Shown one piece after another: positions 2,115 to 46,962 of a stretch of DNA of 55,300 nucleotides. The notes beneath the pieces are model-generated. The model saw nothing but the letters and a program-made list of their open reading frames with translations. It was not told the DNA's origin and searched no databases. Each line of letters starts with the position of its first letter. Position 1 is the stretch's first letter. The position numbers and the translations under genes were made by a program. This DNA comes from Leptospiraceae bacterium (GTDB lineage: Bacteria; Spirochaetota; Leptospiria; Leptospirales; Leptospiraceae): contig JAGOHK010000019.1 of assembly GCA_017996175.1 (NCBI GenBank), positions 1 to 55,300 on the forward strand, given 5' to 3'.

Positions 2115-2186
2115 TGTCACCCCCGAAATTTTCAGTCGGGGGTCTCTAGGACTTGAGATTCCCGATTGAAAATTTCGGGAATGACA
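2115..2186. repeat. 72-bp REPIN-like palindromic doublet, copy 1
   Basis: The unit starts TGTCAC and ends ATGACA. It consists of two adjacent hairpins: left stem ACCCCCGA/TCGGGGGT, right stem ATTCCCGA/TCGGGAAT, each with a 9-base loop, and the two halves are also roughly inverted copies of each other. Three further copies of exactly 72 bp occur at 5490-5561, 33350-33421 and 46891-46962. Two longer variants lie inside the elements at 20502-20690 and 30835-31097. All copies are intergenic. Confidence 0.85.
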
Positions 2187-2273
2187 AATTGCAACCCCCT
2201 TTTCTCTGAGTCTCCGTGTCGGCGTTTACACTGAGCCTTGTCGAAGTGTGGCAAAAAATTTTAAAGGTATAAA

Positions 2274-3119
2274 TTGCAAAAGATTAAATTTACAAAAATG
2301 GAAGGCATCGGGAATGATTATGTGTATATCGATGCAACAAAGGATAATATCCGTTTAACCCCAGAACAAATTCAAAAAGTTTCGAATCGGAATTTTGGAA
2401 TCGGAAGTGATGGGGTTATTTTTATTCGTAAATCGGATAAAGCAGACTTTATGATGGATATGTACAACTCGGACGGATCTTCGTCTGAGATGTGCGGAAA
2501 TGGAATTCGTTGTGTGGGCAAATACGTATTTGACTACAAACTCACCACCTCCAAAACTCCCAAAATCGAAACCGGTAAAGGTGTTTTAGAACTAGACATG
2601 GAAACAGATTCTACAGGAAAAGTAAACCTTGTCACTGTAGATATGGGGGAACCAATTCTTATTCCAGAAAGAGTCCCTGTTTTACTTCCCGGCGAAAAAC
2701 CAATCATCGAACATGAAATCGAAATCAAAGGGTATAAGTTAAAATTCACAGCGGTTAGTATGGGTAATCCGCACGTGGTGATTTTTGTTGAAGACTCGGA
2801 TCAATTTCCTGTGACGGAGATTGGACCAATCCTCGAAACCCATTCTCTTTTTCCGAGACGCACTAATGTAGAATTTGTTTCTGTTCGGGGTAAGAATCAT
2901 TTTTACCAACGGACATGGGAGCGAGGTGCAGGGGAAACTCTGGCTTGTGGAACGGGAGCTTGTGCTGTGCATATTGCTGCAAACCTCACAGGTCGTGCAG
3001 AGCGCAAAACACGTATTGACCTCCGTGGTGGAACTTTATACATCGAATGGACAGAGAAGGGAAATGTCATTATGAAAGGTCCTGCAACTACTGTGTTTGA
3101 GGGTGAAGTGGAGATTTAA
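2274..3119 (+). CDS. dapF: diaminopimelate epimerase
   Basis: DapF converts LL- to meso-diaminopimelate, the last isomerisation before lysine and the cross-linking residue of peptidoglycan. The 281-residue product has both catalytic cysteines in their signatures: [12 protein letters not shown] (C74) and [13 protein letters not shown] (C225). It also has the opening [15 protein letters not shown] and the SMGNPHVV motif, and its length is typical of the family. I place the start at the TTG at 2274 because family members begin about seven residues before KMxGxGND and AAAGG lies about 7 bases upstream. An ATG at 2298 would cut into the conserved N-terminus. It appears monocistronic. Confidence 0.95.
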
Positions 3120-3269
3120 GAGACAAGTGAACAAGTTTTTTCTTTACTATAATAATCAGATTTCTAATGAGATTTAAGAATGGGCATAGAAAATATGATT
3201 AGAAATAAATTTCCTTATTCACAAAAAAAGGGTTTGGGCGATAGCCCAATAAGCCGCCGGCAGGCTAGT

Positions 3270-3315
3270 CATCATTACCCACCTTTCGGATCGAGCCGAA
3301 AGGTGGGTAATGATG
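3270..3315. repeat. perfect 20-bp inverted repeat upstream of membrane protein gene
   Basis: CATCATTACCCACCTTTCGG at 3270-3289 is repeated exactly in inverted form at 3296-3315, with a 6-base loop. It is preceded by a small GGGC-GATA-GCCC hairpin (3237-3248) and a near-palindrome around GCCGCCGGC. No T-run follows, so it is not a standard terminator. It lies 32 bp before the start codon of the next gene and could form a stable leader structure, or be an interspersed repeat. Confidence 0.7.
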
Positions 3316-3347
3316 GATTTGGATGCTTCAAATGAGGTCTTTATTAA

Positions 3348-5321: not shown

Positions 5322-5841
5322 AAAATTCCTTAGTGAACTTCGCGGTGAAAAATTTAATTGTAAAACCATTCAGTCTTTTCTATGAAGCACTTCGATACAG
5401 GTTGGTAGCTCTAACGATTGAAAAACCTTATCTTTTTAAAAGGTTTTTGTACAGATTAGATAAACTATAAACGAACCGGTCATCCAAAGTGTCATTCCCA
5501 AAATTTTCTGTTGGGAATCTCAACTTCTTGAGACCCCCGACAGAAAATTTCGGGGGTGACAAAGTGTTCGTCACTATAAAAAACGAGTGCGGATTACTAG
5601 TTTTGTTCTCACCACAAGAAGAACCACCGGCGAAAACACTCTCCAAGGCTAGTGACCGCCTATTACTAAATGTTTTTAAAGATTTTGTAGTAATTTTTCA
5701 AAAACTCTAATATATCTCTGCGAATACTATTTATTATCCGCAAAATTGAATAATGCAATAATTTTATTTAGATAAAAATTCTTTTTTCATTGATTCCTGA
5801 AAATATTTAATGAGCATAAAATTTATTCTGGAGAATTTTTA
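5322..5841. other. 520-bp intergenic region
   Basis: No convincing gene is present. It holds a stem-loop at about 5418-5444 (AAAAACCTT/AAGGTTTTT around a T-rich loop), which may end transcription of the membrane-protein gene, and the 72-bp palindromic doublet at 5490-5561. Short open frames here begin inside the repeat and have no ribosome binding site. Confidence 0.6.
5490..5561. repeat. 72-bp REPIN-like palindromic doublet, copy 2
   Basis: Same architecture as the copy at 2115 but with the arms swapped: left stem ATTCCCAA/TTGGGAAT, right stem ACCCCCGA/TCGGGGGT. The CAA/TTG change in the left stem is compensated on both strands of the stem, which supports a paired structure. Confidence 0.85.
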
Positions 5842-6120: not shown

Positions 6121-6172
6121 CATCTATTAGCCTACAATTTCTGTTAAACTTTTTGTGAGAGGGAAGTTTTTG

Positions 6173-19344: not shown

Positions 19345-20505
19345 ATGAAGAAAAAGATTGCACTTGTATCACCCATATTTTCCCCTCATATCTCAGGTGG
19401 GGCAGAAAAACATGCGCTAAATTTTGCCGAACTTCTATCAGAAGAATATGATTTAGAAATCCTAACAACTAATGCTTTGGACTATATTACTTGGAAAAAA
19501 GCAATCCCTACCAATCTAGAGCATTTTGGAAATATTCTAGTAAGAAGATTTTCTGTAAGAAAAACTAGAACTATAAAATCTTTCAACAAGTTTCATGCAA
19601 AATTAATACAAAAAATGCCTGATATTCAAGAAGAGGAGATGTTGGAATGGATCAAAATGCAAGGTCCCTATTGCCCTGACCTAATTGAATTCATAAACAG
19701 AAATCACAATGAATACAATGCATTTATTTTTATGACTTATCTTTATTATACTACGATTTACGGAATGGACAAAATTAAAGAAAAATCAATCTGTGTTACT
19801 ACCTTACACGATGAACCACCTGCATACTTTCCAATCTTTAAGAAAATTCTGACAAATGAAGTAACCTATTCTTTTAATACTCCAGAGGAAAGAGATTTAT
19901 TTAAAAAAATTTATTGTTATGAACCAAGTAAATATTCAGTGATTGGATTACATGTTGATCCGCCGAGGCTTACATCTATTAGCCCGCCTAGGTTCGAGTA
20001 TATACTCTATATTGGAAGAATTGATGCCGGCAAAGGTGTATTTACCCTTATAGAACAATTTAAGGAATGGAAACAGAAATACGATTCGAATCTTAAATTG
20101 GTTTTAGTTGGGGGAGGGAAACAGAGATTATCCAATGAGGATATAATTTTTACTGGATACATATCCGAAGAAGAAAAAGTAAGTTATCTAAGGCATTCTC
20201 TTTTTTTAGTGAATCCTTCTCATCTAGAGAGTTTTTCGATTGTTGTAATGGAGGCTTGGTTATTAGAAGTTCCAGTACTCGTAAATAATGACTCTGAAAT
20301 TCTTCGCGCTCATTGCAATCGAAGTAATGCTGGACTGTATTATTCTGATCAAGATAGCTTTTCGGCTACTATGAATTATCTTCTCTCCAGTTCAGAGGTT
20401 CGAAAAAAAATGGGGGCTAATGGTAAAAGATATGTAGAGATGAATTATACACGTGAAGTTGTAAAAAAGAAATTATTTAATTTAGTAGAAACAGTAATCA
20501 ATTAA
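19345..20505 (+). CDS. family 4 glycosyltransferase
   Basis: A 386-residue GT-B-fold enzyme of the glycosyltransferase 4 family, transferring a sugar from a nucleotide donor onto a cell-surface glycan precursor in the cytoplasm. The N-terminal loop SPIFSPHISGGAEKHALN is the acceptor-side GG(A)E motif. The C-terminal Rossmann domain starts at YIGRIDAGKGV and has VLVGGGK, FTGYISEEEK, and the donor-binding NPSHLESFSIVVMEAW (the E...E pair). The stop codon (20503-20505) falls inside the left end of a repeat element, so the original 3' end may have been slightly altered by the insertion. Confidence 0.88.
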   Translation: MKKKIALVSPIFSPHISGGAEKHALNFAELLSEEYDLEILTTNALDYITWKKAIPTNLEHFGNILVRRFSVRKTRTIKSFNKFHAKLIQKMPDIQEEEMLEWIKMQGPYCPDLIEFINRNHNEYNAFIFMTYLYYTTIYGMDKIKEKSICVTTLHDEPPAYFPIFKKILTNEVTYSFNTPEERDLFKKIYCYEPSKYSVIGLHVDPPRLTSISPPRFEYILYIGRIDAGKGVFTLIEQFKEWKQKYDSNLKLVLVGGGKQRLSNEDIIFTGYISEEEKVSYLRHSLFLVNPSHLESFSIVVMEAWLLEVPVLVNNDSEILRAHCNRSNAGLYYSDQDSFSATMNYLLSSSEVRKKMGANGKRYVEMNYTREVVKKKLFNLVETVIN

Positions 20506-20690
20506 CGTGAGTTCGATATAAGAAAGCTATCCTTCATAGCGTGAGCGTCATTCCCGAAATCCCACCCGCTACCGGCAAGCGATATCGGGAATCTGTAGTG
20601 CTAAGAATGATTTTATATTGTTTGAGATCCCCGATAAGGGATTTCGGGGATGACAGAGAGTAATCTCCCGTTACATCGAGGTCACGTTAA
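20502..20690. mobile_element. 189-bp miniature inverted-repeat element, copy 1
   Basis: Imperfect terminal inverted repeats TTAACGTGAGTTCGAT (left, 20502) and ATCGAGGTCACGTTAA (right, ending 20690) enclose a longer palindromic doublet (20546-20654) with stems ATTCCCGA/TCGGGAAT and ATCCCCGA/TCGGGGAT. A related element lies at 30835-31097 and shares the left-end sequence TTCGATATAAGAAAG. No coding capacity. It overlaps the stop codon of the glycosyltransferase gene. Confidence 0.6.
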
Positions 20691-20800: not shown

Positions 20801-23800
20801 TTATTTCCTAGCATTTCTCCAGATTCTACCTGCTAGAATTGCTCCCACCAGAAGGGCGATTGCTGCTGCAATTCCTCTAGTTGAACCACTCTCTGCCGAT
20901 TGCGAAATATATGCCATCAGTTTGCTTCCTTCATCTATTACTTGCTCCATAAATGCTACTTCAGAGGTTGCAGTATAGGTTGTGGGTAGAGTAGATGGAT
21001 CGTAAGCTTCTGTTCCAACTGTGCAATCCAAACAAAGATTCTTATTTGGTAAAGGTTGAATTTGGTAAATTTTATCAGGAACCATATTTACAGTATCCTT
21101 AAACCAATCTGCATTTTGCTGTCCCTTTGTGCTTACCCAATTTGCATACTTAATGTAACCGGTTTTTGAAGTATTGTTGATCACAGTTGTTTCATGACCA
21201 GGTTTCCAAACTTGTGGAATCAGAATCGCCCACTGAAATACAGCCCACTCATCTAGGTATTTATCTTTGCCGATATAATCAGCCTGTGTTTTACCAGTTG
21301 ATACTGCACCGGATGGAATTTGATCAGCTGCACTCCATAAATATCCCAGACCAACTCTATGAATCTCTTTGGTTGCTGGAGATGGGTAATAACTTCCGTC
21401 TGAGTAGAATAGGAACACATCATAAGGAGCTGATCCTAACTCATCCCGTGAAATCGGAGCACCGAACTGAATGCTAACTCTACTAATGTCACCCGGATAG
21501 AATGCACCATGAGAAGCACCTGAATTTCCATAATATGGATTTTCGAAAGGAGCATCCCCATTAACACCAGTAACGCATAATACATCACTTGGGCAACCCG
21601 CTGTAGTATTTAAATTTCTTTGGGGAAAAATAAATAAGCTATCTTTCAACTGACTAGCGGTTAAATCTGTAAGGTTCGTAACAGTGTCCTTCGCAACATT
21701 CGTATAGGTGTATCTTTCCGATTTGAAAGAAGAAACGTTCGCGCTAGAAGGAAGACGAAGTTTAAGTCCAGCTTTATGAGAAGTATTCCAGATGGCTGTG
21801 ACTACTTCAAAATTACCTAAAATCTTTGTAACTTTACCAGCAGCATTCAGATATTCTTCATAGTAGTATTGAACTACATAGTCGTTTAAGTCTGTGCTAG
21901 TTGTGCTATACTTAGGCCAATCTCTTTCGAAACTTTGGGTAAATACTTTTCCTGAATTTTTTCCAGGGTATCTTTGTTTGAATGCAATTTGTGGATCATT
22001 TGGAGCATAATCAAGAGAATCCTCAACTCCGTCCCCATCACTATCAACAATAGTTATTCCATTCAAATTCCCTGAACTTCCATCTAGAACTAAATCACCA
22101 AATTGTAGAATGATTGTGATCGTTCCGTTTATTTCTTTTACAACTTGGATTGGATACCAAGAAGATGTATAGGTTCCTTTGTAAGCTTGCGCATACACAG
22201 TGATAGAATCTGAATTAATGGTAAGCCCAACTGTTCCAGTTACATTTCCTTGTGTATTGGTAATTCCTTGGAATAGAACATCACTATTTATATCTTGCGA
22301 GGTATAAATTTTTACAGTCACACCAGAGACGGCAACATTATCCGAAGATTTTACATTCATATTAACAGGAACTGTACTATAGATGCTAGATGTAAATGTA
22401 CTACTAACTGAATTGTAATTGCTTGCGTTTACAGTTAAATTTGCAGTTCCCGATTTTCCACCGTAACTTGCAGTGATTGTAGTTGGTCCACCAGTCGAAA
22501 CTGCGGTTGCCTTTCCTTTATTGGGACTTAAATTATCAACTGCTGCAACAGACGAATTAGAGGAAGTCCAAGTTGCTACATCTGTCACATCTATCTGTGA
22601 TCCGTTGCTAAAAGTCGCTAGGGCAGTATAGTATTTGATTGATTTATTGCTGTTCGTAGGTTCATCTGAGTATAGAGGCAAATAAGCATCTCTACCAATA
22701 TAGATGGAACTAACTGTTAAGCTATTTACAGTCAAAGTTTTACTTCCTGTTTTATTATCAAGAGTTGCAGAAATTGTAGTAGTTCCTGTTGCAACGGTAG
22801 TCGCAAGACCTGTGCTACCACCGATAGTCGCAATGCTTGTAGAAGAAGAACTCCATGCAACTTCCGATGTAATATCTCTTGTAGTTCCATTGGAATAAGT
22901 TCCTATCGCAGTATATTGTTGTGTAAATCCTGTAGGTAAAGATATACCGTTAGGCGAAACACTGATCGAACTGAGTGTAATACTTGGATTTACAGTTAAG
23001 GTAGATGAATTACTAATAATAGTTCCACCACCAGTAGTTACTATGCCATTTACCCCACTTGGGATACTTGCTGTTATGCTACTAGTTCCAGCGGAAATGG
23101 CAGATGCTTGTCCATTAGACCCATCCGCATTACTAATAGTAGCCGCAGTCGTAGAAGAAGATGACCAAGTTACTAAAGAAGTAATGTCTTGTGTGGTTCC
23201 ATCTGTAAAAGCTCCTATCGCAGTATATTGATTAGTCGCTCCAGCAGTAATAGTCGCATTTCCACCAATTGCTATGGAAGATAAAGTAGCTTGTGTTACA
23301 GTGAGTGTAGAGGAATTACTGGTAATTCCATTTAGAGAAGCTTGAATTGTACTAGATCCTTGTCCTGCACCAGTAGCAAGTCCTTCTGTTCCAGTTCCGT
23401 TACTAATTGCTACATTTCCTGTAGAAGAAGAATTCCAACTTACTAAAGAAGTAATATCTAATGTACTACCATCTGTGTAGGTTCCAGTTGCAGTATATTG
23501 TTTTGTAGTTCCTTTTGCGATAGAAGAGCTTCCATTGATTTCGATAGAAACAAGAGTGGCTGCGGTTACAGTTAAATTACCCGAACCTGATTGTCCACCT
23601 ATGGAAGCAGAAATTGTAGCAGATCCCATGCCGATTGCTTGTGAGGTTCCCCCAGTCGTTGAAGAAGTATCTACTCCTGCAACAGCAGAATTGGAAGAAG
23701 ACCAAACAGCAGAATTGGTAACATCAACTACAGAGCCATCCGAATAAGTAGCAGTTGCTGTGAATTGAGTAGTGGTTCCTTTTGCAATGGACTGAGGAGA

Positions 23801-24802
23801 TGGACTTACTACCACTGAAGTAACAGTAGCTGCAGAGATAGTTACTGGTTTTGTTCCAGTTACACCTAAATAAGAAACTTGAACGATTGTTGATCCAATA
23901 GAGATAGAAGTGAGAACTCCTTTATTTCCAACACTATCATTGATAGCTGCATGAGTGGTATTAGTTAAACTCCAAGTGGCTTGTGTTGTAATATCAGAAG
24001 ATGTTCCATTGGAAAATTGAGCACTTGCGGTATAACTAGTTGTATTTCCTGCACTGATAGAAGAGACCCCAGTTATTGTAATCGAAACAACCGTTGGACT
24101 AGTAACCGTTGTGCTCGTAGTTGCTGTTCCATTATTTGCAACACTTGGAAAATTTTCAGGGTTCGTAAGTGTGGCAGTAATAGTTACTGCTCCCGTAGAG
24201 CTTCCGCCTGTTCCAATTCCAGTTTGACTATCAATAGAAATTCCAGATGAATTGTTAGAAGACCAAGTTACTAAAGCGGATATATCTTGTGTTGTGCCAT
24301 CCGAAAAAATACCAGTTGCGTAGTATTGAACCGTACCACCAGAAACTAAACTCGGCACTGCTGTGATTTGAATAGAGGTCAGTGTGGCAGCAGTCACATT
24401 TAAACTAGCATTCCCAGCTATAGAATTATAACCTGCGCTAATCTGCGCTGGAGTTCCGACAGATGTAAGTCCTACACCTAAAAAATTACCCTTTGGGGAA
24501 TCAACGGCTGATACTTTATCGGTCTCAGAGTTAACAGTCCAATCACATTGGTTTGTAATATCTAGGGTTGTTCCATCCGAATAAATCCCTGTTGCTTTGT
24601 AGATTGCCTGTGTGCCTTTTGCAACAGATTGGTCTGCCGGGGAAACGGTAATATTGGTAAGAGAAGCACCTGTGGCACTCCTACTTACGTTAACCGATGA
24701 ATCCCCTGTTGAACTTGTAAAGGGGATGTATTTTTTTTCTTTTTTTGAGCAAGCTCCTGCAAAAAGCAGGGCTGTGATCAGTACAGATAGTATTTTTCTC
24801 AT
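20801..24802 (-). CDS. BIg2-repeat, LruC-domain lipoprotein (1333 aa)
   Basis: A large surface lipoprotein. The signal MRKILSVLITALLFAGAC has a lipobox (AGAC), followed by SKKEKKYIPF. Eight tandem bacterial Ig-like (BIg2) domains follow, each about 85 residues and recognisable by phrases such as QYTATGTYTDGSTLDIT and WSSS. Next comes a calcium-binding-like DSDGDGVEDSLDYAPNDP and an LruC-type domain (AFKQRYPG, DLNDYVVQYYYEE, FEVVTAIW) with a CLDC cysteine pair near the end. The C-terminus is a hydrophobic tail, GIAAAIALLVGAILAGRIW, plus basic residues. BIg2 proteins of Leptospira (Lig family) bind host and matrix molecules; whether this one does is unknown. I use the ATG at 24802, which has GGAGAAG upstream. 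It is a paralogue of the next gene. Confidence 0.88.
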   Translation of the reverse strand: MRKILSVLITALLFAGACSKKEKKYIPFTSSTGDSSVNVSRSATGASLTNITVSPADQSVAKGTQAIYKATGIYSDGTTLDITNQCDWTVNSETDKVSAVDSPKGNFLGVGLTSVGTPAQISAGYNSIAGNASLNVTAATLTSIQITAVPSLVSGGTVQYYATGIFSDGTTQDISALVTWSSNNSSGISIDSQTGIGTGGSSTGAVTITATLTNPENFPSVANNGTATTSTTVTSPTVVSITITGVSSISAGNTTSYTASAQFSNGTSSDITTQATWSLTNTTHAAINDSVGNKGVLTSISIGSTIVQVSYLGVTGTKPVTISAATVTSVVVSPSPQSIAKGTTTQFTATATYSDGSVVDVTNSAVWSSSNSAVAGVDTSSTTGGTSQAIGMGSATISASIGGQSGSGNLTVTAATLVSIEINGSSSIAKGTTKQYTATGTYTDGSTLDITSLVSWNSSSTGNVAISNGTGTEGLATGAGQGSSTIQASLNGITSNSSTLTVTQATLSSIAIGGNATITAGATNQYTAIGAFTDGTTQDITSLVTWSSSSTTAATISNADGSNGQASAISAGTSSITASIPSGVNGIVTTGGGTIISNSSTLTVNPSITLSSISVSPNGISLPTGFTQQYTAIGTYSNGTTRDITSEVAWSSSSTSIATIGGSTGLATTVATGTTTISATLDNKTGSKTLTVNSLTVSSIYIGRDAYLPLYSDEPTNSNKSIKYYTALATFSNGSQIDVTDVATWTSSNSSVAAVDNLSPNKGKATAVSTGGPTTITASYGGKSGTANLTVNASNYNSVSSTFTSSIYSTVPVNMNVKSSDNVAVSGVTVKIYTSQDINSDVLFQGITNTQGNVTGTVGLTINSDSITVYAQAYKGTYTSSWYPIQVVKEINGTITIILQFGDLVLDGSSGNLNGITIVDSDGDGVEDSLDYAPNDPQIAFKQRYPGKNSGKVFTQSFERDWPKYSTTSTDLNDYVVQYYYEEYLNAAGKVTKILGNFEVVTAIWNTSHKAGLKLRLPSSANVSSFKSERYTYTNVAKDTVTNLTDLTASQLKDSLFIFPQRNLNTTAGCPSDVLCVTGVNGDAPFENPYYGNSGASHGAFYPGDISRVSIQFGAPISRDELGSAPYDVFLFYSDGSYYPSPATKEIHRVGLGYLWSAADQIPSGAVSTGKTQADYIGKDKYLDEWAVFQWAILIPQVWKPGHETTVINNTSKTGYIKYANWVSTKGQQNADWFKDTVNMVPDKIYQIQPLPNKNLCLDCTVGTEAYDPSTLPTTYTATSEVAFMEQVIDEGSKLMAYISQSAESGSTRGIAAAIALLVGAILAGRIWRNARK

Positions 24803-24944
24803 AACACTCTTCTCCATAATTTCCTATTTCATCTGACGAAAAAAAAGGATTGATTCTTTCGCGAACACGGTATGCAAATTGCAAAATTTCGATATTCTTT
24901 TTTTAATATGTCTGAACTTTTTTGTAAATTCGGTTCCAACAAAA

Positions 24945-25082: not shown

Positions 25083-28000
25083 TTACTTATTCTTACGGTT
25101 ACTCCAAATTCTACCTGCGAGAATTGCGCCCACAAGGAGTGCGATGGCTGCTGCGACTCCTCTTGTTGTGCCACTCTTCGCTGACTTGGAAATATAAGCC
25201 ATAAGTTTGTTACCACCATTGATCACTTCGTCTACGAAGGCTACATCCGCAGTTGTTGTGTATGAGGTTGGTAAATCACCTAAAACACAACCAGATGGAG
25301 TTCCAGCAGTATTTGAGCAGTAGTATTTTCCGCTGTCATTTCCGGCTGTTCCAGGATCATAGGTATCAGCACCTGCACAATCTAGACATAGGTTTTTGTT
25401 TGGTTTTGGTAGGATTTGATATGCGTTAGAGTTAACGATATTTGCTGCCTTATACCAATTTGTGTAGGTGTTACCGTTTGAATTAATCCAATCTAAATAC
25501 TTAGGGTAAGCCGAATCAGTTGAACTGTTTAAGTTTTTGCCTTCTACTTGTGGTTTCCAAACTCCAGGAACGATTGTTCCCCAAGCGAACTTAATATTAT
25601 CACTCTTATACTTATCTTTACCTACGCAAGCAGAATCAGCTTCAACGGGAGCGTGATAAGGACAATAAGTTGAGTCACCTGATGCCCAAACATAACCAGA
25701 CCCAGCCACATGGATTTCTTTCGCAGAGCCAGATGTAGAGGGAGTTTGGAAGTATCTCAGGTATAAGTCATAGGGAGCATTTCCTACTTCATCTCTTGTT
25801 GCTGGAGAAGTTAGTTTGATACTAACACGACCTATATCACCTGGACGGAATGTTTTAAATGTGCTACTATAACCACCAGTAGAGTGAGTAGATGGAGCCC
25901 CTGCATTATTGAGGAGTACATCTGTTGTTGCGTTACTGGATGTTTTTGGGATTAACACTAGATTATCTTTCAGTTGTGCTGCTGTTGGGTTAGTGATAGT
26001 AAGAGGATTATTAACAGTCAAAGCTGTATCAACTCCGCCACTAACTGTAGAAACTGTCCAACTAGACGGTCTTTGTGTTCCATCGTAACGATAGTAAGTT
26101 GCTTTGTATTCAGAAACTCCTAAACCAGGAAGTCTGAGTTGTAGCGTTTGACTTTCGTAGTCGTAACGCCCTCTGACTATGATCTGATAATTTCCACGTA
26201 TCTCTACTATACCGCCTGTCGCATTGGTGTCTTCCTCATTATAGAACTGAACCGTATAGTCATTCAAGTCTCTGTTGGTAGGATTCGGCCAGTTATTCTC
26301 TATGTTAAGAGAATAAACCTTATCTCTCATACTTGGGAAACGAGTCTTAAATGCTTTAGTTGCATCACTTGGGTAAGCATCATTTGCATCTTCTACACCA
26401 TCACCGTCAGTATCTGTGATTGGGAGAGCGTTTAAAGCAGCAATCGTTGTGTCCAAGGTAAAGTCTTTAAGAAGTAACATAACTTTTAAAGTTCCAGAAA
26501 CATCTTTCACAATTTCAATTGCTTGCATAGAGGATGTATATCCACCTTTATAAGCCTGTCCATATACAAAGATGGAACTAGAATTCATTTGAATTGGCAA
26601 AGTTCCTGTTACTCTTCCTGAACCATCACTTAGAGCTTGGAAAAGAACATATCCATTTGACGAGGCATCATAGATTTTGATTATAACACCCGATACTGCC
26701 ACTCCATTTTGGTCTTTAACAATTAGGTCAATTGGAATGCTATTAGTTACTGAACCAGTAAAGTTATCAGTCACGGCGGTTTCATTTTCAGCCTTAACTG
26801 CTAGTGTTGCGGATCCGGTGATGCTTGATTTCACAGCAGTAATAGTTGTGTTCCCTGCAGCTACAGTAGAGGCTAAACCATTTGAGCCTGACGCATTACT
26901 AATAGTTGCCGCACCAGTACTACTAGATGCCCATGTTACTTGATCTGTAATGTCTACTTTGCTTCCATCGGAGAAGTTACCCCATGCGGTATATTGTTTA
27001 GTTGCCCCTGCCGGATAAGTCGCATTAGCCCCAATATAGATACCTGTTAATGTAACTGAGTTCACAGTGAGAGTTGTTGAGTCAGATACCGCACCTAACG
27101 TTGCAGAAATATTTGTAGAACCAGCTGCCACAGGAGTTGCGAGACCATTTGAACCACCAGCATTGCTAATAGTAGCCTTTGATGTAGCAGAAGAAGCCCA
27201 AGTAACAGTATTTGTTATATCCGCAGTTGTTCCATTGGAATAGGTTCCAGTTGCAGTAAATTGTTTTGTGAAACCTGTGCTAACAGTATCCCCTCTCGGA
27301 GAAATCGCGATAGAAGTTAATGTAACAGCGGCATTCACAGTCAAGGTTGCAGTTCCTGACATTCCACCAAATGCAGCAGTAACGGTTGGAGATCCTGCAG
27401 CTACACCAGTTGCTAGACCACCCGTTGTGATTGTCGCAAAACCAGTATTAGACGATGTCCACGTTGCTGTGTTAGTAATATCAGAAGAAGCTCCACCGTT
27501 ATAGTTTGCTGTAGCGGTAAATTGTTGTGTACCACCAACAGTCACAGAAGGAGTAGAAGGAGTAACAGAAATATTAGCCAAAACCGCTTGTACAGTTAAC
27601 GCAATAGAGTTACTAGTTACACCACTTAAGCTCGCGCTGATATTGGTAGACCCACTGTAGATACCGGTTGCTTTTCTGGTTGTGCCATTGATAGTTGCTT
27701 TTGCAGTATCAGAAGAAGACCAAGTTACACTACCTGAAATATCGCGTGGCGCAAGTCCATCATTGTATGTTCCCATAGCAACGTAGGCAGCCGTTTGATT
27801 TCCATAAGCAACACTTGTGTCCCCAGTAACGTTGATAGAAAGGAGAGTCGCAGCATCCACTGTTAGAGTTACAGAGTTACTTGTAATACTAGTCGTAGGA
27901 TCTGTTGCAGAAATACTTGCTGTACCTGCGGTTACACCAGTTGCCTTTCCTTTGTTTGCTGTTGCTGTATTATCAATCGTAGCATTTCCTGTATTAGAAG

Positions 28001-30209
28001 AATTCCAAGTTACAGACGAAGTGATGTTAGCTGTTGACCCGTTGTTGTAAGTTCCTGTTGCAGTAAATCCAGTTGATTGTGTAGTTCCTACAATTAAATT
28101 GCTAGGACTTGTAGGGGTAATTGCAATAGAAGAAAGGGTAATAGCAGTTACGCCTAACGCTACAGAGCTACTATTGATTGCACCTAAACTAGCGGAAATA
28201 TTGGTTGAACCTGCTGATACGCCAGTTGCTTTTCCTTTGCTAGAATCCGCCACATTACTAATAGTCGCATTTCCAGTTGCAGAAGAATTCCAAGTTACAG
28301 AAGAAGAAATATCCGCAGTAGTTCCATTGTCGTAATGACCGATTGCAGTAAATGCGTTAGTAGTCATACCTACAATTACAGAGGAAGCAGGAGCATTGAT
28401 ACTAATGGATTGAAGAGTAGTCGCATTAACTGTAAACCCAACTGAATTACTAGTTACGCCACTTAGTGTTGCAGTAATATTAGAAGAACCTGCTGATACA
28501 CCTGTAATTTTTCCTTTAGAAGCATCTGCCGCATTACTGATAGTAGCCGCTCCTGTATTAGAAGAAATCCAAGTAACTTGAGAAGAAATATCTGCTGTTA
28601 TTCCAGTGTTGTAAGTTCCTGTCGCAGTGTATGCATTGGTAATAGTCATACCAGCGATTGTAGAAGTAACAGACGGAGTGATTGCAATAGAAACCAGAGT
28701 AGCAGCAGAAACTCCGAGAGCCACTGTATTACTATTTACACCACTTAAACTTGCAGTGATATTGGTGGAACCTGCTGATACACCGGTTGCTCTACCTTTG
28801 GTAACATCTGCTACGTTACTAATAGTTGCAATTCCTGTGTTAGAAGAGTTCCAAGTTACAGAGGAGGTGATATTAGCAGTCGTGCTATTATTGTAAGTTC
28901 CGGTTGCGGTAAACGTTTGGTTATTCCCAGCTATGATAGATGGATTGTTGTTAGGAGTAATTGCTATCGAAACTAAAGTAGCAGAATTTACTGTAACAGC
29001 CACTGTATTACTGGTAACTCCACCGAATGTAGCAGTGATGTTAGTTGAACCTGTTGCTACCGATTGCATTGCTCCACCATTTACTAAATCAGAAACGATA
29101 GTCGCAGCAGCATTATTAGAGGAATTCCAGACAGCCATTTTGGTTACATCTAAAGTAGTATTGTCTGAATAAGTTGCTATTGCAGTAAATTGTTGTCCTA
29201 ATCCCACTGTAAGAGATGACCCGCCCGAAATTGCAATGGATGTGAGAGTCGGGGCGGATGCCGGAATCGTTATATTTACTGTTCCAGTTACTCCTAGCAG
29301 AGAAGCTGTCACGGAAGTAGTACCTTCGTTTACAGTACTTAGTATACCTTTTGTCCCAGAAGCATTGCTCTGAGTAGCGATATTGGAATCTCCTGTTCCC
29401 CAAGTTACTTGATTGGTGAGATTCTGGTTGCTACCATCTGAAAAAATACCTGTTGCTACGTATTGTGTTACAATACCTTTTGCAGGATTCAAATTTCCAG
29501 TGATTTGAATAGATACTAAGGTTACGGCAGCTACTGCTATAGGACTATTATTACTGGATACAGCCGAAGAACCAGTTGGAGTAAAACTTGCCGCAACAGT
29601 TGTGCTTCCTGAACTTACACCGGTCACTTGACCAGCAGTGCTAGGATTATTGCTAACTACAGTTGCAACACTGGAGCTACCTGTCGTCCAACTTGCATAA
29701 CTTGTAATATCCTGTGTTGAACCATCAGAAAAAACAGCTATTGCAGTATATTGTGTGCTTGTACCGGATGCAACTTGTGAGCTAGAGCTTGTTACTGTAA
29801 TGGAAGTTAGACTTGCATTGGTGACAGTTAAGTTACCAGTTCCTTCTAAGGAATCCATTGTAGCTTTTACTTGTGAGGTACCTGCTGTTTTTCCGCTAAC
29901 GCGTCCCTTTGTTCCCGTTGCTTCAGAAACACTGGTATTTTGCGTACCCCATGTTACCTCGGAAGTAATATCATGGTGACTTCCGTTGGAGTAATACCCT
30001 TCTGCCTTAAATACGCCGTAGGTTCCTTGCGCGATTTGGGCATTTGTAGGAGTTACTCTTATTTCTGTTAAAGATCCACCACCAGTTAAAGAAAAATTCT
30101 GGGTGGTATCTCCACTTGAACTCGAAAAAGGTAAAAATTTCTTTTCCTTTTTCGAACATCCGCCTACAAAAAGTAGGGCGGTGATCAAAATATAAATGAT
30201 TTTTTTCAT
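25083..30209 (-). CDS. BIg2-repeat, LruC-domain lipoprotein (1708 aa)
   Basis: Paralogue of the gene at 20801. The signal MKKIIYILITALLFVGGC is followed by SKKEKKFLPFSSSSGD, nearly identical to its neighbour. I count twelve BIg2 domains (for example TKQFTATGTYSNGTTADIT), then DTDGDGVEDANDAYPSDATK and an LruC-type domain (AFKTRFPS, WPNPTNRDLNDYTVQFYNEE, VEIRGNYQIIVRGRY, LRLPG). A CLDC pair and an extra C...C pair (YYCSNTAGTPSGC) follow. The C-terminal tail GVAAAIALLVGAILAGRIW plus SNRKNK matches the paralogue. I choose the ATG at 30209 because the lipoprotein signal begins there; the 21 codons before it are not signal-like. Likely lipid-anchored at the N-terminus with the repeats exposed; the C-terminal helix is unusual for an outer-membrane lipoprotein. 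Confidence 0.88.
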   Translation of the reverse strand: MKKIIYILITALLFVGGCSKKEKKFLPFSSSSGDTTQNFSLTGGGSLTEIRVTPTNAQIAQGTYGVFKAEGYYSNGSHHDITSEVTWGTQNTSVSEATGTKGRVSGKTAGTSQVKATMDSLEGTGNLTVTNASLTSITVTSSSSQVASGTSTQYTAIAVFSDGSTQDITSYASWTTGSSSVATVVSNNPSTAGQVTGVSSGSTTVAASFTPTGSSAVSSNNSPIAVAAVTLVSIQITGNLNPAKGIVTQYVATGIFSDGSNQNLTNQVTWGTGDSNIATQSNASGTKGILSTVNEGTTSVTASLLGVTGTVNITIPASAPTLTSIAISGGSSLTVGLGQQFTAIATYSDNTTLDVTKMAVWNSSNNAAATIVSDLVNGGAMQSVATGSTNITATFGGVTSNTVAVTVNSATLVSIAITPNNNPSIIAGNNQTFTATGTYNNSTTANITSSVTWNSSNTGIATISNVADVTKGRATGVSAGSTNITASLSGVNSNTVALGVSAATLVSIAITPSVTSTIAGMTITNAYTATGTYNTGITADISSQVTWISSNTGAATISNAADASKGKITGVSAGSSNITATLSGVTSNSVGFTVNATTLQSISINAPASSVIVGMTTNAFTAIGHYDNGTTADISSSVTWNSSATGNATISNVADSSKGKATGVSAGSTNISASLGAINSSSVALGVTAITLSSIAITPTSPSNLIVGTTQSTGFTATGTYNNGSTANITSSVTWNSSNTGNATIDNTATANKGKATGVTAGTASISATDPTTSITSNSVTLTVDAATLLSINVTGDTSVAYGNQTAAYVAMGTYNDGLAPRDISGSVTWSSSDTAKATINGTTRKATGIYSGSTNISASLSGVTSNSIALTVQAVLANISVTPSTPSVTVGGTQQFTATANYNGGASSDITNTATWTSSNTGFATITTGGLATGVAAGSPTVTAAFGGMSGTATLTVNAAVTLTSIAISPRGDTVSTGFTKQFTATGTYSNGTTADITNTVTWASSATSKATISNAGGSNGLATPVAAGSTNISATLGAVSDSTTLTVNSVTLTGIYIGANATYPAGATKQYTAWGNFSDGSKVDITDQVTWASSSTGAATISNASGSNGLASTVAAGNTTITAVKSSITGSATLAVKAENETAVTDNFTGSVTNSIPIDLIVKDQNGVAVSGVIIKIYDASSNGYVLFQALSDGSGRVTGTLPIQMNSSSIFVYGQAYKGGYTSSMQAIEIVKDVSGTLKVMLLLKDFTLDTTIAALNALPITDTDGDGVEDANDAYPSDATKAFKTRFPSMRDKVYSLNIENNWPNPTNRDLNDYTVQFYNEEDTNATGGIVEIRGNYQIIVRGRYDYESQTLQLRLPGLGVSEYKATYYRYDGTQRPSSWTVSTVSGGVDTALTVNNPLTITNPTAAQLKDNLVLIPKTSSNATTDVLLNNAGAPSTHSTGGYSSTFKTFRPGDIGRVSIKLTSPATRDEVGNAPYDLYLRYFQTPSTSGSAKEIHVAGSGYVWASGDSTYCPYHAPVEADSACVGKDKYKSDNIKFAWGTIVPGVWKPQVEGKNLNSSTDSAYPKYLDWINSNGNTYTNWYKAANIVNSNAYQILPKPNKNLCLDCAGADTYDPGTAGNDSGKYYCSNTAGTPSGCVLGDLPTSYTTTADVAFVDEVINGGNKLMAYISKSAKSGTTRGVAAAIALLVGAILAGRIWSNRKNK

Positions 30210-30834
30210 GACTCTCTTATCTCCATTTTTATCGTGTAATTTCTGACTAGAAAAAAATATGAATTCTATCAATATCGATCTTTAGAATTTAATTATTTTT
30301 CCGATACAAATTTTTTTTTTAAACGAATGGTTTTAATAAATAAAGTTATTGCAAAATAAAAGATAACCTAAATACGAATCAATGGTTTAAGTCAATCCCC
30401 CAATATTTCGAAATAATCCAATCTATAAAAGCACTTTTAATCAATAAATATAAAGTTATTTTCCTTTTCCTTCCAGGCTAAAAATAGACACTAATTAGTA
30501 TTAAATACTTATGTTTTGCCTACTTTTAATGAATAAAGATAAAATTCTAATTAAAACTAATACCCATTATCCGCTCATTTTTAAGAATTAATTTTCCAAG
30601 CTTTTGAATGTTACAAAATAAAACTTTATTCCCGCCGTGAAGACGTATTGATAACGATACATCATTAGTAGGTACAAGGATAAGTTTTCCGCTAGGATCA
30701 AAGATAGGTTGAGAAAAATACATTACAAAATTTAACCTACATATAATCTTAGATAGGAACCTAGTATTGAACCTATGATAGGTGTATCGTAAATACGAAT
30801 TCATTCAAAGTACCTACCGACTGACAATACTGTA

Positions 30835-31097
30835 CAACGTTAATTCGATATAAGAAAGTTATCCTTTATGTCATCCCCATGCGAAGGCGCTGGTTCGCGA
30901 ATACTTGGAGCGAAGGGCGGAACCCTTATCGGGGATCTCAAGTAATATAAAATACTACTTAGAACTAGAGATTCCCAACAGAAAATTTTGAGAATGACAA
31001 ATTCAAAATCCTCCTAACGAACTCCTAATTGTTTCTGGAGTTCGATAGATTTGTTTCCAGCAACGCTGGCTTTGGACTTACACCGAGTTCACGTTGA
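30835..31097. mobile_element. about 262-bp miniature inverted-repeat element, copy 2
   Basis: Related to the element at 20502-20690. The left end CAACGTTAATTCGATATAAG and right end CCGAGTTCACGTTG form imperfect inverted repeats. Inside is a long palindromic doublet (30869-30999) with ATCCCC and ATTCCC arms. After it comes an extra hairpin CGAACTCC/GGAGTTCG (31019-31046). No coding capacity is evident. Confidence 0.5.
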
Positions 31098-33317: not shown

Positions 33318-33349
33318 AATATAGGTAAGCTAAATTGAAAATCGGTATT

Positions 33350-33421
33350 TGTCATCCCCGAGTTTTTTTGTCGGGGATCTCTAGAACAATAGATTCCCGA
33401 CTGAAAATTTCGGGAATGACA
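33350..33421. repeat. 72-bp REPIN-like palindromic doublet between ftsA and ftsZ
   Basis: Copy 3 of the family: left stem ATCCCCGA/TCGGGGAT, right stem ATTCCCGA/TCGGGAAT. It occupies much of the 177-bp gap between two genes that normally form one transcription unit. It could affect mRNA processing or stability there. Confidence 0.85.
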
Positions 33422-33494
33422 CTACTTCGCCGAAACCAATTGAACTTGTGTATATTGCAAAAGGTGAAATTAAAAATAAAAATGGAGCAAAATT

Positions 33495-42395: not shown

Positions 42396-42425
42396 ATTTT
42401 ATGAGATTGATAGTAGTATAGTCAA
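42396..42425 (-). promoter_or_regulatory. candidate sigma70 promoter of the TonB receptor
   Basis: Minus-strand TTGACT (42425-42420) and TAAAAT (42401-42396) are separated by 18 bp. Transcription would begin just before the GGTGAAATACC element, leaving a leader of about 165 nt before the ATG at 42221. Confidence 0.5.
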
Positions 42426-42522
42426 GTCGGTTTCAAAAATAAGTAAAATTTAAAGATTGCGACTTACAATGAATTGATAAATTCTTGAGAATTTTCTTGG
42501 TTAGAGGCTGCACTTGTTATTC

Positions 42523-43416
42523 TTAAACAGTGACCTCGCAGAAATACTTTATATGATTTAGTAATCCACCTTGGTGTAGATAGATTCCTTTACCTTTCAG
42601 TTTTTCTTTTTTGATATAATGATTTAAGGTATATAGCGTTTTGCCGGAGTAAACTGGCTCAAGAGGGATTTTTTTTTCGGACCAGACTTTACGAATCCAA
42701 TCTTCTAGGATTTTATTTTTACTTGCGAATGCAGGAGATAGGTTTGGTTCTAGAAGTTTTAATTTAGAAATAAGATTTCTTTCAAGTCCTAGCTTATCTG
42801 CATTAGCCTCTAAGTCGTATTGGATTTTATCTAATTTGTTTCCAATGGATACTCCTATGATTTGAATCTTTTTTTCTTTAAAAAATTCTAAAGCCGATAA
42901 AGCAGTAAATCCAGTTCCTATATCTAAAAAAAGGTAATCAAAATTATCCACAGATTCAATTTCTTTCCACAGAAAATTTAATGTTCTTAAACCAGCTTCG
43001 TGAATTCCAAATTCTGGAATTACAAATCCATTGGGGAATCCTTTTTTGAATTCATTTAGGTAGAAGTCGCGGTTGGATTTTGATTTAGAAAAAATAATAG
43101 TTTCAGAAAATCGTTTGGATAATAGAGAATTAGCTGTAACCAATTTTATATCATTTGTATAAAATACACTATGCACTAAAAATCCTTCTAAACTCAAAAT
43201 CGTCGCAAATGTAGCCATAAAATTGGAGTGAGGATTTCCATAGAGTAATATATCTTTTATATTTCCCTGTTTTAGAAATTGAATCAGTCCATGGAGTTTT
43301 TTCAGTTTTACTCCAAAGTTGGCAAACGTTTTGTCCTCTCTTTTTATTAGAAGTGTAAAATCTTGGTAAAATTCGAAAATTTCTACGGGTGTAGTTTTGT
43401 AATAGTTTAGATTCAT
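42523..43416 (-). CDS. PLP-dependent ACC deaminase/D-cysteine desulfhydrase-like enzyme
   Basis: A 297-residue fold-type II PLP enzyme. LLIKREDKTFANFGVKLKKL aligns with the 'vKRdDl..l..GGNKvRKLe' stretch of the family, keeping the PLP lysine (K37) but lacking the usual GGN before it. YGNPHSNFMATFATILSLEG matches the 'G..qSNh...tA..a...G' loop, and LDIGTGFTALSAL the phosphate-binding glycine loop. Family members deaminate ACC or D-cysteine. It overlaps the pbpC stop codon (ATGA), an association suggesting a D-amino-acid or cell-wall link. Substitutions around the cofactor loop make the exact reaction uncertain. Confidence 0.72.
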   Translation of the reverse strand: MNLNYYKTTPVEIFEFYQDFTLLIKREDKTFANFGVKLKKLHGLIQFLKQGNIKDILLYGNPHSNFMATFATILSLEGFLVHSVFYTNDIKLVTANSLLSKRFSETIIFSKSKSNRDFYLNEFKKGFPNGFVIPEFGIHEAGLRTLNFLWKEIESVDNFDYLFLDIGTGFTALSALEFFKEKKIQIIGVSIGNKLDKIQYDLEANADKLGLERNLISKLKLLEPNLSPAFASKNKILEDWIRKVWSEKKIPLEPVYSGKTLYTLNHYIKKEKLKGKGIYLHQGGLLNHIKYFCEVTV

Positions 43417-45491: not shown

Positions 45492-45750
45492 AAATCAGTT
45501 ACCAAAAGAAATTTTCCATTCTTTAAACTGATCTTTATTTTGGGTGTTTGGGAATACCCTATTTTTCACAAAAAAGGAAATTACTTTTGCTAGAGATAGC
45601 AAAGGGTATATAAAAATAGAACTGGGATTTTTAAGGGCTCTGCCCGATTGGTTAGCGTTGTCGAATCCATAAAACCCGCGCGGTAGCGCCTCCAGATCAC
45701 TCGTCAACGGCGTTAGCCGTTGCAATTAGTATTCGCTTTTTCGAATCATT
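45492..45750. repeat. intergenic region with a short palindrome
   Basis: This region holds CAACGGC-GTTA-GCCGTTG (45704-45721), a 7-bp-stem hairpin in a GC-richer patch that differs in composition from its surroundings. An open frame across the region has no ribosome binding site and no recognisable product, so I do not call a gene. Confidence 0.45.
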
Positions 45751-45900
45751 CTAATGGGACTGTGTAAAAGCAAAAAAAATTGTGAACCGCGAAGTGCGCG
45801 AAGATCACGAAGGTTAAAATTTCCTAGGAAATTTCTAGTTTTTCTTCGCGTCCTTCGTGCGCTTCGCGGTAAATAATATCTTTTTACACAATCCCATTAG
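45751..45900. mobile_element. 150-bp miniature inverted-repeat element
   Basis: Terminal inverted repeats CTAATGGGACTGTGTAAAAG (left) and its near-complement CTTTTTACACAATCCCATTAG (right, ending 45900) match at 18 of 20 positions. Inside, short units like GCGCGAAG and CACGAAGG are repeated and inverted (ACCGCGAAG...CTTCGCGGT). A degenerate relative lies at about 50194-50306. There is no coding capacity, so movement would need a transposase elsewhere. It ends 16 bp before the next gene. Confidence 0.7.
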
Positions 45901-45915
45901 AAAATAGAAAGACTT

Positions 45916-46446
45916 TTGCGAAATGATTTAAAAAACAAAAAAAGTTCTGGAAAAAGTTTGTATTACTTACAAAGCTATCTAATTGTAGAGGAAAGTTTGA
46001 ACATTATAGAGTATACAAACCCAAGGGAATATCCTGTTAATATTGAATTCTTTGAGGCAGGGGGACCCGTTGCTTCCAAATACAGGTATAGCACCCATAT
46101 TAGAGTATTTAGCAAGTCGGATAAAATTTTTTTGTACTACAAAGAAGTTCGAGATTTCATATCTAATAAACCGCGCCTTGTAGTTTCTAATGAAAAAGAA
46201 CTTTCTTTGGAAGTTTATAAGGAATTTCTAATAGATCTTCTGAATCTAAAAGTTTTAGAGGCTAATCGTAGTTTTATACCAGAAAATTCCCAGATAGAAA
46301 AGCCAAATTTCTTTTCTTTAACGTTAGGCGAATCGGTGAGCGTTCGTTTTGATTATTTAATCCTGAATAAAGACACTGTGGAATTTGAACCATTCGAAGA
46401 TATTATCCAAGCGATGAAAAATTTACTTTTTTCTAATTTACGTTAA
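45916..46446 (+). CDS. hypothetical protein
   Basis: A 176-residue soluble protein with no signal peptide or membrane helix. Start would be the TTG at 45916, preceded by AGAAAG; it lies 16 bp after the end of a 150-bp inverted-repeat element, so its 5' end or promoter may have been altered by that insertion. The sequence is a mix of charged helices and strands (IEFFEAGGPVASKYRYSTHI, KDTVEFEPFEDIIQAMKNLL). I do not recognise a family. It ends exactly where the convergent PIN toxin gene ends, with no space between stop codons. Confidence 0.55.
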   Translation: MRNDLKNKKSSGKSLYYLQSYLIVEESLNIIEYTNPREYPVNIEFFEAGGPVASKYRYSTHIRVFSKSDKIFLYYKEVRDFISNKPRLVVSNEKELSLEVYKEFLIDLLNLKVLEANRSFIPENSQIEKPNFFSLTLGESVSVRFDYLILNKDTVEFEPFEDIIQAMKNLLFSNLR

Positions 46447-46854
46447 TTAGAATCCAACTAATTCCACCTTAAATATCTTAAAATCCTTTGCATTTTTAGT
46501 TACAACTTTTAGATTGTTGATAGATGCGATAGCCGCTATATGTCCGTCCACAAGCGACGGAGTTTTTCCAATTTTGGTAAGACGTGCTTTTTCTTTTGCA
46601 TGCCAGAGAGCAGCTTCTGTGTTGTATTCGAAAATCGGTAGTGTATCACGGATGGATTTGATATATGTCTCGAGAATTTTTTTCTTTTTGCTGTCTTCTA
46701 AAATTTCCATTCCATACTGCAATTCATGAAGGACGAGACTACATGTTGATAGTGTAGATTCATTCTTTTCTAAAAATTCTAATACCTTTGCGTCGGGAGA
46801 TTTTTTGACTTGTTCGGAAAGAATATTTGTATCGAGAAGATAAAGCGGTTCCAT
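46447..46854 (-). CDS. PIN-domain toxin (VapC-like)
   Basis: A 135-residue PIN RNase, expected to cleave tRNA or other RNA when released from its antitoxin. The acidic active-site residues are present: LLDTNILSE (D8), LHELQYG (E44), SLVDGHIAAIA (D103) and VTKNAKDF (N121, D124), the standard order for VapC. The antitoxin gene ending at 47016 lies upstream on the same strand but is separated by 161 bp that contain a 72-bp palindromic doublet; such pairs usually overlap or abut. The spacing may change the toxin:antitoxin ratio. Confidence 0.85.
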   Translation of the reverse strand: MEPLYLLDTNILSEQVKKSPDAKVLEFLEKNESTLSTCSLVLHELQYGMEILEDSKKKKILETYIKSIRDTLPIFEYNTEAALWHAKEKARLTKIGKTPSLVDGHIAAIASINNLKVVTKNAKDFKIFKVELVGF

Positions 46855-46890
46855 AATTAAAGTCAGTTTGATCTAAAAAACTTTTGTTCC

Positions 46891-46962
46891 TGTCATCCCC
46901 GAAATTTTCTGTCGGGGATCTTTAGTAGTTGAGATTCCCGACAAAAGAACTCGGGAATGACA
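46891..46962. repeat. 72-bp REPIN-like palindromic doublet between toxin and antitoxin
   Basis: Copy 4: left stem ATCCCCGA/TCGGGGAT, right stem ATTCCCGA/TCGGGAAT. It lies between the antitoxin gene (stop at 47016) and the PIN toxin gene (start at 46854). Confidence 0.85.

What the first reader, a model, noticed from the sequence alone, without database searches (positions are those of the whole stretch)
2115..46962. 72-bp palindromic doublets with a hetero-arm rule and compensatory changes
Four intergenic copies are exactly 72 bp (2115-2186, 5490-5561, 33350-33421, 46891-46962); two longer variants lie at 20546-20654 and 30869-30999. Each copy is two adjacent hairpins with 8-bp stems and, in the 72-bp copies, 9-base loops. 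Stem sequences vary (ACCCCCGA, ATCCCCGA, ATTCCCGA, ATTCCCAA), and in the four 72-bp copies every change is matched by its complement in the same hairpin. That is direct evidence that each arm pairs with itself. In addition, every copy combines one ATTCCC arm with one more C-rich arm (ATCCCC or ACCCCC), never two of the same kind, in either order. The format resembles REPINs (paired REP sequences moved by RAYT/IS200-like TnpA proteins), but the head GTCAT and the two-arm asymmetry are not what I know from described families.
Basis: partly seen in the sequence, partly recalled or inferred. Interest (0 to 1): 0.72.

Follow-up and report, generated by a model that had tools for sequence, protein, structure and literature searches.

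The report
One hairpin pair, many mobile elements
Short stretches of DNA predicted to fold into two unlike hairpins recur in a relative of Leptospira and in many other bacterial groups, where some copies form the middle of tiny transposon-like elements whose ends differ from group to group, so unrelated mobility enzymes have likely carried the same hairpin pair.

Summary
All six copies are where stated; in the four 72-bp copies every stem change is matched by its partner. Across 69 fixed-length doublets from three congeneric genomes the two arms share the diagnostic stem dinucleotide in 3, against 26 expected: the one-T-arm, one-C-arm rule is strong but not absolute. "Either order" is only strand orientation. 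The interpretation needs changing. The GTC tag, the 8-bp stem and a preference for heterodimers are described for "CGTC" REPs (PMC3733652); here loops have 9 bases instead of 4-5. No such hairpin lies at 15 RAYT-type (Y1_Tnp) loci. New here: 72 bp is often not the whole element. Of 62 own-genome copies, 20 have an inverted motif (CGAATTCACGTTA facing outward) beyond both arms; short flank duplications are in excess and one site is empty in a sister genome. In other phyla, doublets are cores of elements with other ends and other duplication lengths (5, 5, 7, 8 bp). Best reading: a CGTC-like heterodimer serving as core of several unrelated miniature inverted-repeat elements, likely moved in trans by different DDE transposases. 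At 3 of 10 orthologous sites the arm order is reversed. No transposase was identified.

The parts
2115..2186 (.). 72-bp doublet, C-arm 2119-2143 (ACCCCCGA stem) and T-arm 2158-2182 (ATTCCCGA stem); shared with sister genome G002 in the same arm order
5490..5561 (.). 72-bp doublet, T-arm 5494-5518 (ATTCCCAA) and C-arm 5533-5557 (ACCCCCGA)
33350..33421 (.). 72-bp doublet, C-arm 33354-33378 and T-arm 33393-33417, between ftsA (stop 34 nt before) and ftsZ (start 75 nt after); not present at this place in G002 and G003
46891..46962 (.). 72-bp doublet, C-arm 46895-46919 and T-arm 46934-46958; its T-side flank resembles that of a framed copy (L131); outer motif on both sides only with 4 of 13 substitutions
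20504..20688 (.). 185-bp inverted-repeat-framed element containing the long doublet 20546-20654 (T-arm 20550-20592, C-arm 20627-20651)
20504..20522 (+). left terminal inverted repeat AACGTGAGTTCGATATAAG
20670..20688 (-). right terminal inverted repeat (GTTACATCGAGGTCACGTT read on +)
30836..31095 (.). 260-bp inverted-repeat-framed element containing the long doublet 30869-30999 (C-arm 30873-30936 with a long loop, T-arm 30971-30995) and extra sequence before its right end
30836..30854 (+). left terminal inverted repeat AACGTTAATTCGATATAAG
31077..31095 (-). right terminal inverted repeat (CTTACACCGAGTTCACGTT read on +)

Best explanation
The doublets are pairs of CGTC-like REP sequences predicted to fold as hairpins, nearly always one T-type arm facing one C-type arm, that in about a third of the 62 own-genome copies examined (20) lie between inverted end motifs of a 150-300-bp element, which is likely moved by a transposase encoded elsewhere, while the unequal arms likely hinder the two hairpins from annealing into one long palindrome. 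Shown: the arm rule, within-arm covariation, inverted ends, an excess of short flanking duplications, an unoccupied site in a sister genome, and the same core inside elements with other ends in other phyla. Inferred: that DDE-type transposases act on the inverted ends in trans (no transposase gene was found), that different enzymes serve different lineages (from different ends and duplication lengths), that copies without visible ends are mostly eroded (seen for one), and that the arm difference protects the palindrome or tells its two ends apart.
For: Motif CGAATTCACGTTA (up to 4 substitutions) outward of both arms in 20 of 62 own-genome copies and of one arm in 16; null 7.7% per flank; 17 of these 62 are also paired-end elements under a stricter 17-nt end pattern. 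The 20-nt end motif occurs 85, 72 and 25 times in G000, G002, G003, which hold doublets, and 0 times in congener G001, in which none was found. 33 paired-end elements: exact 6-bp flank duplication in 8 (0.94 expected) or, with ends placed one base outward, 4-bp in 11 (about 2.2 expected from 0.0663 per element). Empty site for C176:87032 in G003 with one TATTTA; G002 has TATTTA before and TATTTC after the element. Far phyla: 27 of 113 doublets (16 of 57 genomes) have flanking inverted repeats above the null's 99th percentile; exact duplications: Nitrospirae 130-bp element 5 bp in both framed places (of 4 places looked at), Schekmanbacteria 123-bp element 5 bp in 3 of 5 framed (of 6), Omnitrophota 8 bp in L100 and 7 bp in L021. 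Arm rule: 3 of 69 same against 26.2; wide set 33 of 121 same against 55.1. Cross-arm pairing depleted; recoding both arms alike favours the long hairpin by 14.5 kcal/mol against 6.5 (TC/TT) and 3.6 (CC/TT) (DNA parameters).
Against: No autonomous partner or transposase gene with these ends was found (the listing was truncated). 26 of 62 copies show no end motif, 28 of 62 have no flank resembling another copy's, and a motif-free inverted-repeat test passes only 6 of 62, one of them through another repeat; doublets may also move or persist alone. 16 of 20 stretches fetched for unpaired end motifs show no second end, several at contig ends. Neither framed element in the window has an exact duplication, nor have other framed families (Schekmanbacteria B 0 of 3, Anaerolineales 0 of 3, Bacteroidota 0 of 1; KSB1 and a third Omnitrophota family only 2 bp); the families were picked from the best inverted repeats and carry no own null. 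Of the 27 far inverted repeats at least five are other REP arms, self-palindromes or low-complexity (L010, L051, L052, L054, L096). The long hairpin is still predicted better than two hairpins in 57 of 69 natural copies with DNA and 68 of 69 with RNA parameters, and the folded window element shows it. One far doublet has identical arms (1 of 118). A heterodimeric founder could explain the rule within the genus.
Confidence: 0.55

Rival explanations
1. A REPIN proper: the 72-bp doublet itself is the mobile unit, cut as single-stranded DNA by an IS200/RAYT-type HUH transposase that reads the GTC tag and hairpin.
For: Two inverted tagged hairpins; pairing looks DNA-like, 3 G-T among 1104 stem cells; 28 of 62 copies have no flank resembling another copy's; Y1_Tnp genes exist in the genome.
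Against: No hairpin at any of 15 Y1_Tnp loci; no Y1_Tnp ORF in 119 doublet loci; a congener without detected doublets has Y1_Tnp genes; inverted ends with flank duplications fit a DDE enzyme; the paper reports no transposase association for CGTC REPs.
Confidence: 0.15
2. The hetero-arm rule has no function: one heterodimeric master copy spread as a unit in each lineage and all copies inherited its two arms.
For: 66 of 69 genus doublets share one T/C polarity; some far genomes are homodimeric, for example Anaerolineales 0 of 3 hetero and KSB1 1 of 4; TT/TT doublets are common in the wide set (27 of 124).
Against: Loops agree between arms more than by chance while the stems differ (identical loops 19 of 66 against 7.0 expected; 66 of 69 differ at the third stem position); reversed arm order at 3 of 10 orthologous sites with the difference kept; taking one doublet per far genome, 37.4 of 59 are hetero against 28.2 for random pairing (maximum 40).
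Confidence: 0.35
3. RNA elements kept by the host as transcription terminators or mRNA-end stabilisers.
For: 19 of 22 mapped sites lie outside predicted ORFs (3 fall within an ORF of 80 codons or more), 11 of 22 between co-directional genes and 4 convergent; strong hairpins; one copy between ftsA and ftsZ.
Against: No Rfam match at gathering scores; almost no G-U pairs among varying stem pairs; no consistent orientation to the genes; none found in a 99%-complete congener; both-sided inverted ends with flank duplications.
Confidence: 0.1

Closest known systems
CGTC-tagged REP superfamily (Di Nocera et al. 2013, PMC3733652; includes Neisseria dRS3 and Rickettsia RPE-4/RPE-6)
   Same: CGTC/TGTC tag outside the stem, 8-bp stem with A-T first, head-to-head dimers with tags outside, heterodimers preferred in several families, patchy distribution (Spirochaetes among the phyla named), no transposase gene beside them; H. 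neapolitanus CGTC-1 dimers are all heterodimers and lie within palindromes
   Different: 9-nt loops instead of 4-5; TCT tail in this genus instead of CCA; here outer palindromes behave as transposon-like ends with flank duplications, different in each lineage
REPINs with RAYT transposases (Bertels and Rainey 2011, PMC3116915; search listing only, features recalled)
   Same: paired inverted REP hairpins dispersed between genes
   Different: no RAYT beside them, no GTAG tag, inverted ends and flank duplications around many copies
Bacterial MITEs (for example MITEAba12, PMC6382973; review PMC10969869; search listings only, features recalled)
   Same: short, inverted ends, flank duplications, no transposase gene inside
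   Different: unrelated end sequences in different phyla share the same doubly hairpinned core; parent insertion sequence not found

Membership tests
CGTC REP superfamily | CGTC (or TGTC) motif unpaired at one end of the hairpin | tested here: met
   GTC invariant in the 21 aligned copies; outward neighbour A or G on 233 of 242 flanks of the wide set, i.e. TGTC or CGTC
CGTC REP superfamily | 8-9-bp stem with complementary A and T at first and second position | tested here: inconclusive
   8 bp; first pair A-T 138 of 138, second T-A 101 of 138 and C-G 36
CGTC REP superfamily | loop of 4-5 bases | tested here: not met
   9-nt loops; the paper itself lists exceptions
CGTC REP superfamily | short CCA tail | tested here: not met
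   TCT in all 21 aligned copies; far copies often TCCA
CGTC REP superfamily | mostly head-to-head dimers (tags outside) | tested here: inconclusive
   doublets found are head-to-head (definition), but single and tail-to-tail units were not searched for systematically
REPIN/RAYT system | RAYT gene flanked by the REP | tested here: not met
   0 of 15 Y1_Tnp loci with a hairpin
REPIN/RAYT system | mobilisation by the RAYT protein | not testable with these tools
   needs biochemistry
MITE | terminal inverted repeats around a short element without transposase gene | tested here: met
   20 of 62 copies with the motif on both sides; 33 paired-end elements of 150-298 bp
MITE | target-site duplication | tested here: met
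   8 of 33 exact 6 bp against 0.94 expected; far elements with 5, 7 and 8 bp, others without
MITE | ends shared with a transposase-coding parent element | tested here: inconclusive
   no 1-2-kb pair noticed among the listed end motifs (listing truncated); the 717-bp candidate at C218 lies in a stretch with no ORF over 87 codons; assemblies are drafts

The most novel reading that the evidence does not exclude
The unequal hairpin pair is a portable DNA module that unrelated MITEs in many bacterial phyla have independently taken up as their core because it promotes their movement or survival; it flips in place, keeping one T-arm and one C-arm, much as the unequal arms of parvovirus terminal repeats flip and flop (analogy recalled).
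Probability: 0.2. Interest if true: 0.8.

Novelty: new variant of a known kind. Interest (0 to 1): 0.56.

Why it matters
CGTC REPs are scattered over many phyla and, in the 2013 survey, had no known engine. Finding CGTC-like doublets as the core of inverted-repeat elements with different ends and duplication lengths offers a concrete one (DDE transposases acting in trans) and turns the preference for heterodimers, noted there without explanation, into a testable question: do unequal arms protect a palindrome, mark its ends, or only reflect descent? Orthologous sites with reversed arm order suggest that the order changes within a genus while the difference stays.

Tried and rejected
RAYT as neighbour: tested on 15 Y1_Tnp loci and the 119 loci of the wide scan, negative. 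Rfam: no match. Clean empty sites for three window copies: flanks too rearranged to define ends; the copy at 33350-33421 is missing in G002 and G003, where other sequence fills the place. C176:80255 is missing in G002 and G003 without clean limits. A transposase inside the 717-bp end-to-end stretch at G000:C218: no ORF over 87 codons, not searched further. End motif in viral contigs: 0; the 185-bp window element in plasmids: no match. Compensation idea (same-dinucleotide doublets differ instead at the inner stem pairs): only a trend, 19 of 30 against 43 of 91, p = 0.14. Cross-arm energies came out as zero through a wrong constraint and were redone. Orientation against GC skew or genes: no pattern seen by eye in 22 sites.

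Rows dropped before counting: of 26 G002 and 16 G003 pattern hits, 2 and 3 whose second arm runs into a long loop were left out, giving 24 and 13; all 32 of G000 were kept, 69 in all. Loop statistics use 66 of the 69 (3 same-arm doublets have no orientation). Flank work used 62 of at least 79 own-genome places: 6 in the window, 16 of the loci and 40 fetched places. Of 124 doublets in the wide scan, 3 duplicates were dropped (121, including three Leptospiraceae loci); those loci were left out (118; 113 with 60-nt flanks). The 33 paired-end elements come partly from stretches fetched because they hold doublets; of the 16 in stretches L205-L236, fetched for end motifs (at least L215 and L216 were also known doublet places), 12 are flagged as doublet-bearing.
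Full report
Where it is. The window is contig C53 of a 5.4-Mb draft genome (G000). Its relatives G002 and G003 (same genus) coincide in contig length, place and sequence with records titled Leptospiraceae bacterium UBA2033 and isolate 336R_metabinner_194.

Observation. Genome-wide, 32 doublets have the exact spacing (control 0); a covariance model lists 77 places with the number scored capped, and with the two long window copies at least 79 are known. G002 and G003 have 26 and 16 fixed-spacing copies; none was found in G001, a 99% complete congener. Of 60 relatives searched with stricter filters only G002 and G003 match besides G000 itself. On 21 aligned copies each arm pairs with itself: 99.7% paired cells, 30 double-sided changes, no single-sided one, one broken cell. 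Pairing arm 1 with arm 2 gives no more pairs than any of 500 shuffles. Over 69 genus doublets 1085 of 1104 stem cells are Watson-Crick, 3 G-T and 16 mismatched; in the far set 1852 of 1888, 14 G-T and 22 mismatched, under a pattern that fixes part of the stem. This fits pairing as DNA better than as RNA (inference).

The arm rule. In 66 of 69 genus doublets the third stem position is T in one arm and C in the other; 3 of 69 share the dinucleotide against 26.2 in permutations (0 of 20,000 as low). Two of 40 further own-genome copies are T/T, 3 unclassifiable. Loops behave oppositely: both arms have the identical loop in 19 of 66 against 7.0 expected (maximum of 5,000 permutations 15). No genus doublet has identical arms over 28 nt (0 of 69).

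Wide scan. Of 121 distinct doublets 33 share the dinucleotide against 55.1 expected. Without the Leptospiraceae, 83 of 118 differ at the third position; 38 of 59 genomes are mostly hetero, 21 mostly not; in genomes with three or more, 48 of 60 against 29.3 in within-genome shuffles, but single genomes differ (Anaerolineales 0 of 3, KSB1 1 of 4). One perfect homodimer exists (1 of 118), so identical arms are possible.

The element is larger than 72 bp. Outward flanks of own-genome copies repeat. A motif CGAATTCACGTTA faces outward on both sides in 20 of 62 and on one side in 16 (null 7.7% per flank). Extended to 20 nt it occurs 85, 72, 25 and 0 times in G000, G002, G003 and G001 (reversed-pattern control 1 in G001, 0 in the others), the same presence and absence as the doublets. 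The fetched stretches contain 33 end-to-end elements of 150-298 bp. Exact 6-bp flank duplications occur in 8 of 33 (0.94 expected), or 4-bp in 11 of 33 with ends one base further out (about 2.2 expected). In the window the framed elements are 20504-20688 and 30836-31095; neither has an exact duplication. At C176:87032 the own copy has eroded ends, the G002 orthologue clearer ones between TATTTA and TATTTC, and G003 no element and one TATTTA. So at least one copy that looks naked is an eroded framed one. Against this, 28 of 62 copies have no flank resembling another copy's, a motif-free inverted-repeat test passes only 6 of 62, and 16 of 20 stretches fetched for unpaired end motifs show no second end; for most naked copies the question stays open.

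Same core, different ends. In the far set 27 of 113 doublets (16 of 57 genomes) have flanking inverted repeats above the 99th percentile of the null, about 1 expected; at least five of the 27 are other REP arms, self-palindromes or low-complexity sequence. Families picked from the best and read out: Nitrospirae, 130 bp, ends GAGGCTCTTGCAAAA, framed in 2 of 4 places, 5-bp duplication in both; Schekmanbacteria, 123 bp, ends ATCGTTTTCTAGTT, framed in 5 of 6, 5 bp in 3; Omnitrophota L100, 123 bp, ends GGTAGTGGGTCAGTTTGC, 8 bp; Omnitrophota L021, 149 bp, ends CTTGAGTTTGTCACTTTT, 7 bp. A second Schekmanbacteria family (0 of 3), Anaerolineales (0 of 3) and a Bacteroidota copy (0 of 1) have inverted ends without exact duplication; KSB1 (3 framed of 4) and a third Omnitrophota family (2 framed of 3) show only 2-bp matches. 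Different ends and duplication lengths suggest different transposases; that they are DDE enzymes acting in trans is inference.

Arm order at orthologous sites. Ten doublet sites with matching flanks on both sides were found between G000 and G002 or G003. Seven keep the arm order; three (L122/L268, L123/L242, L290/L253) have it reversed with collinear flanks. Direct against flipped distances are 13/8, 12/4 and 21/7. In L290/L253 the asymmetric spacer is reversed too, which supports inversion of the core; in L122/L268 loops and spacer stay and only the stem letters swap; in L123/L242 the spacer cannot decide. Independent re-insertion is not excluded.

Why unequal arms. With DNA parameters, recoding both arms alike favours the single long hairpin by 14.5 kcal/mol; unequal arms cut this to 6.5 (TC/TT) or 3.6 (CC/TT), yet the long hairpin is still favoured in 57 of 69 natural copies, and in 68 of 69 with RNA parameters, and the window element folds that way. 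Unequal arms weaken but do not abolish the palindrome. Protection from palindrome-cleaving enzymes such as SbcCD was proposed by Di Nocera et al.; marking left and right ends is an alternative; descent from one heterodimer per lineage is the null.

Comparison with what is known. Tag, stem length, dimer orientation and heterodimer preference match the CGTC REP superfamily; loop length and tail do not, so I call it CGTC-like, not a strict member. That paper notes H. [quoted passage not shown] A 2025 survey says that Spirochaetota REP motifs resemble those of other taxa (PMC12306157, passages only). In the searches I saw no title or abstract start describing CGTC dimers as cores of MITEs with different ends; most subscription papers are not held. 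RAYT tests were negative.

Verdict. A real, strongly non-random repeat, closest to CGTC REP heterodimers; new are the transposon-like frames, their diversity across phyla around one core, and the reversed arm order at orthologous sites. Enzyme and function remain open.

Noticed in passing
33318-33494: A doublet sits between ftsA and ftsZ (ftsQ-ftsA-doublet-ftsZ); G002 and G003 have other sequence there instead.
   Followed up: partly
L175/L249 and L289/L281: In two orthologous pairs with flanks about 94-97% identical, the short loop of one copy is replaced so that the doublet is 33 nt longer (103 instead of 70); the inserted sequences (GCGAAGGCG... or CCGCCAAGCGATAT... type) recur in other own-genome copies: other repeats enter the hairpin loops.
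   Followed up: partly
20801-24817 and 25083-30272: Two large adjacent proteins with bacterial Ig-like Big_2 domains and a DUF4842 domain, flanked by the two framed elements of the window.
   Followed up: no
about 47360-47519 and 49001-49040: Another intergenic repeat (TTACCACCGATG...ACACCGA type, both orientations), which also occurs in G002.
   Followed up: no
2229-2250: A CACTGAGCCTTGTCGAAGTGTG motif lies just after the first doublet; similar motifs occur inside the loops of several own-genome doublets (L177, L178, L181, L199, L204).
   Followed up: no
L002 and L148: G000 and G003 share a RAYT-like 175-180-aa gene (E about 1e-61) that was not among the Y1_Tnp hits of G002, although G002 is rich in doublets.
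   Followed up: partly
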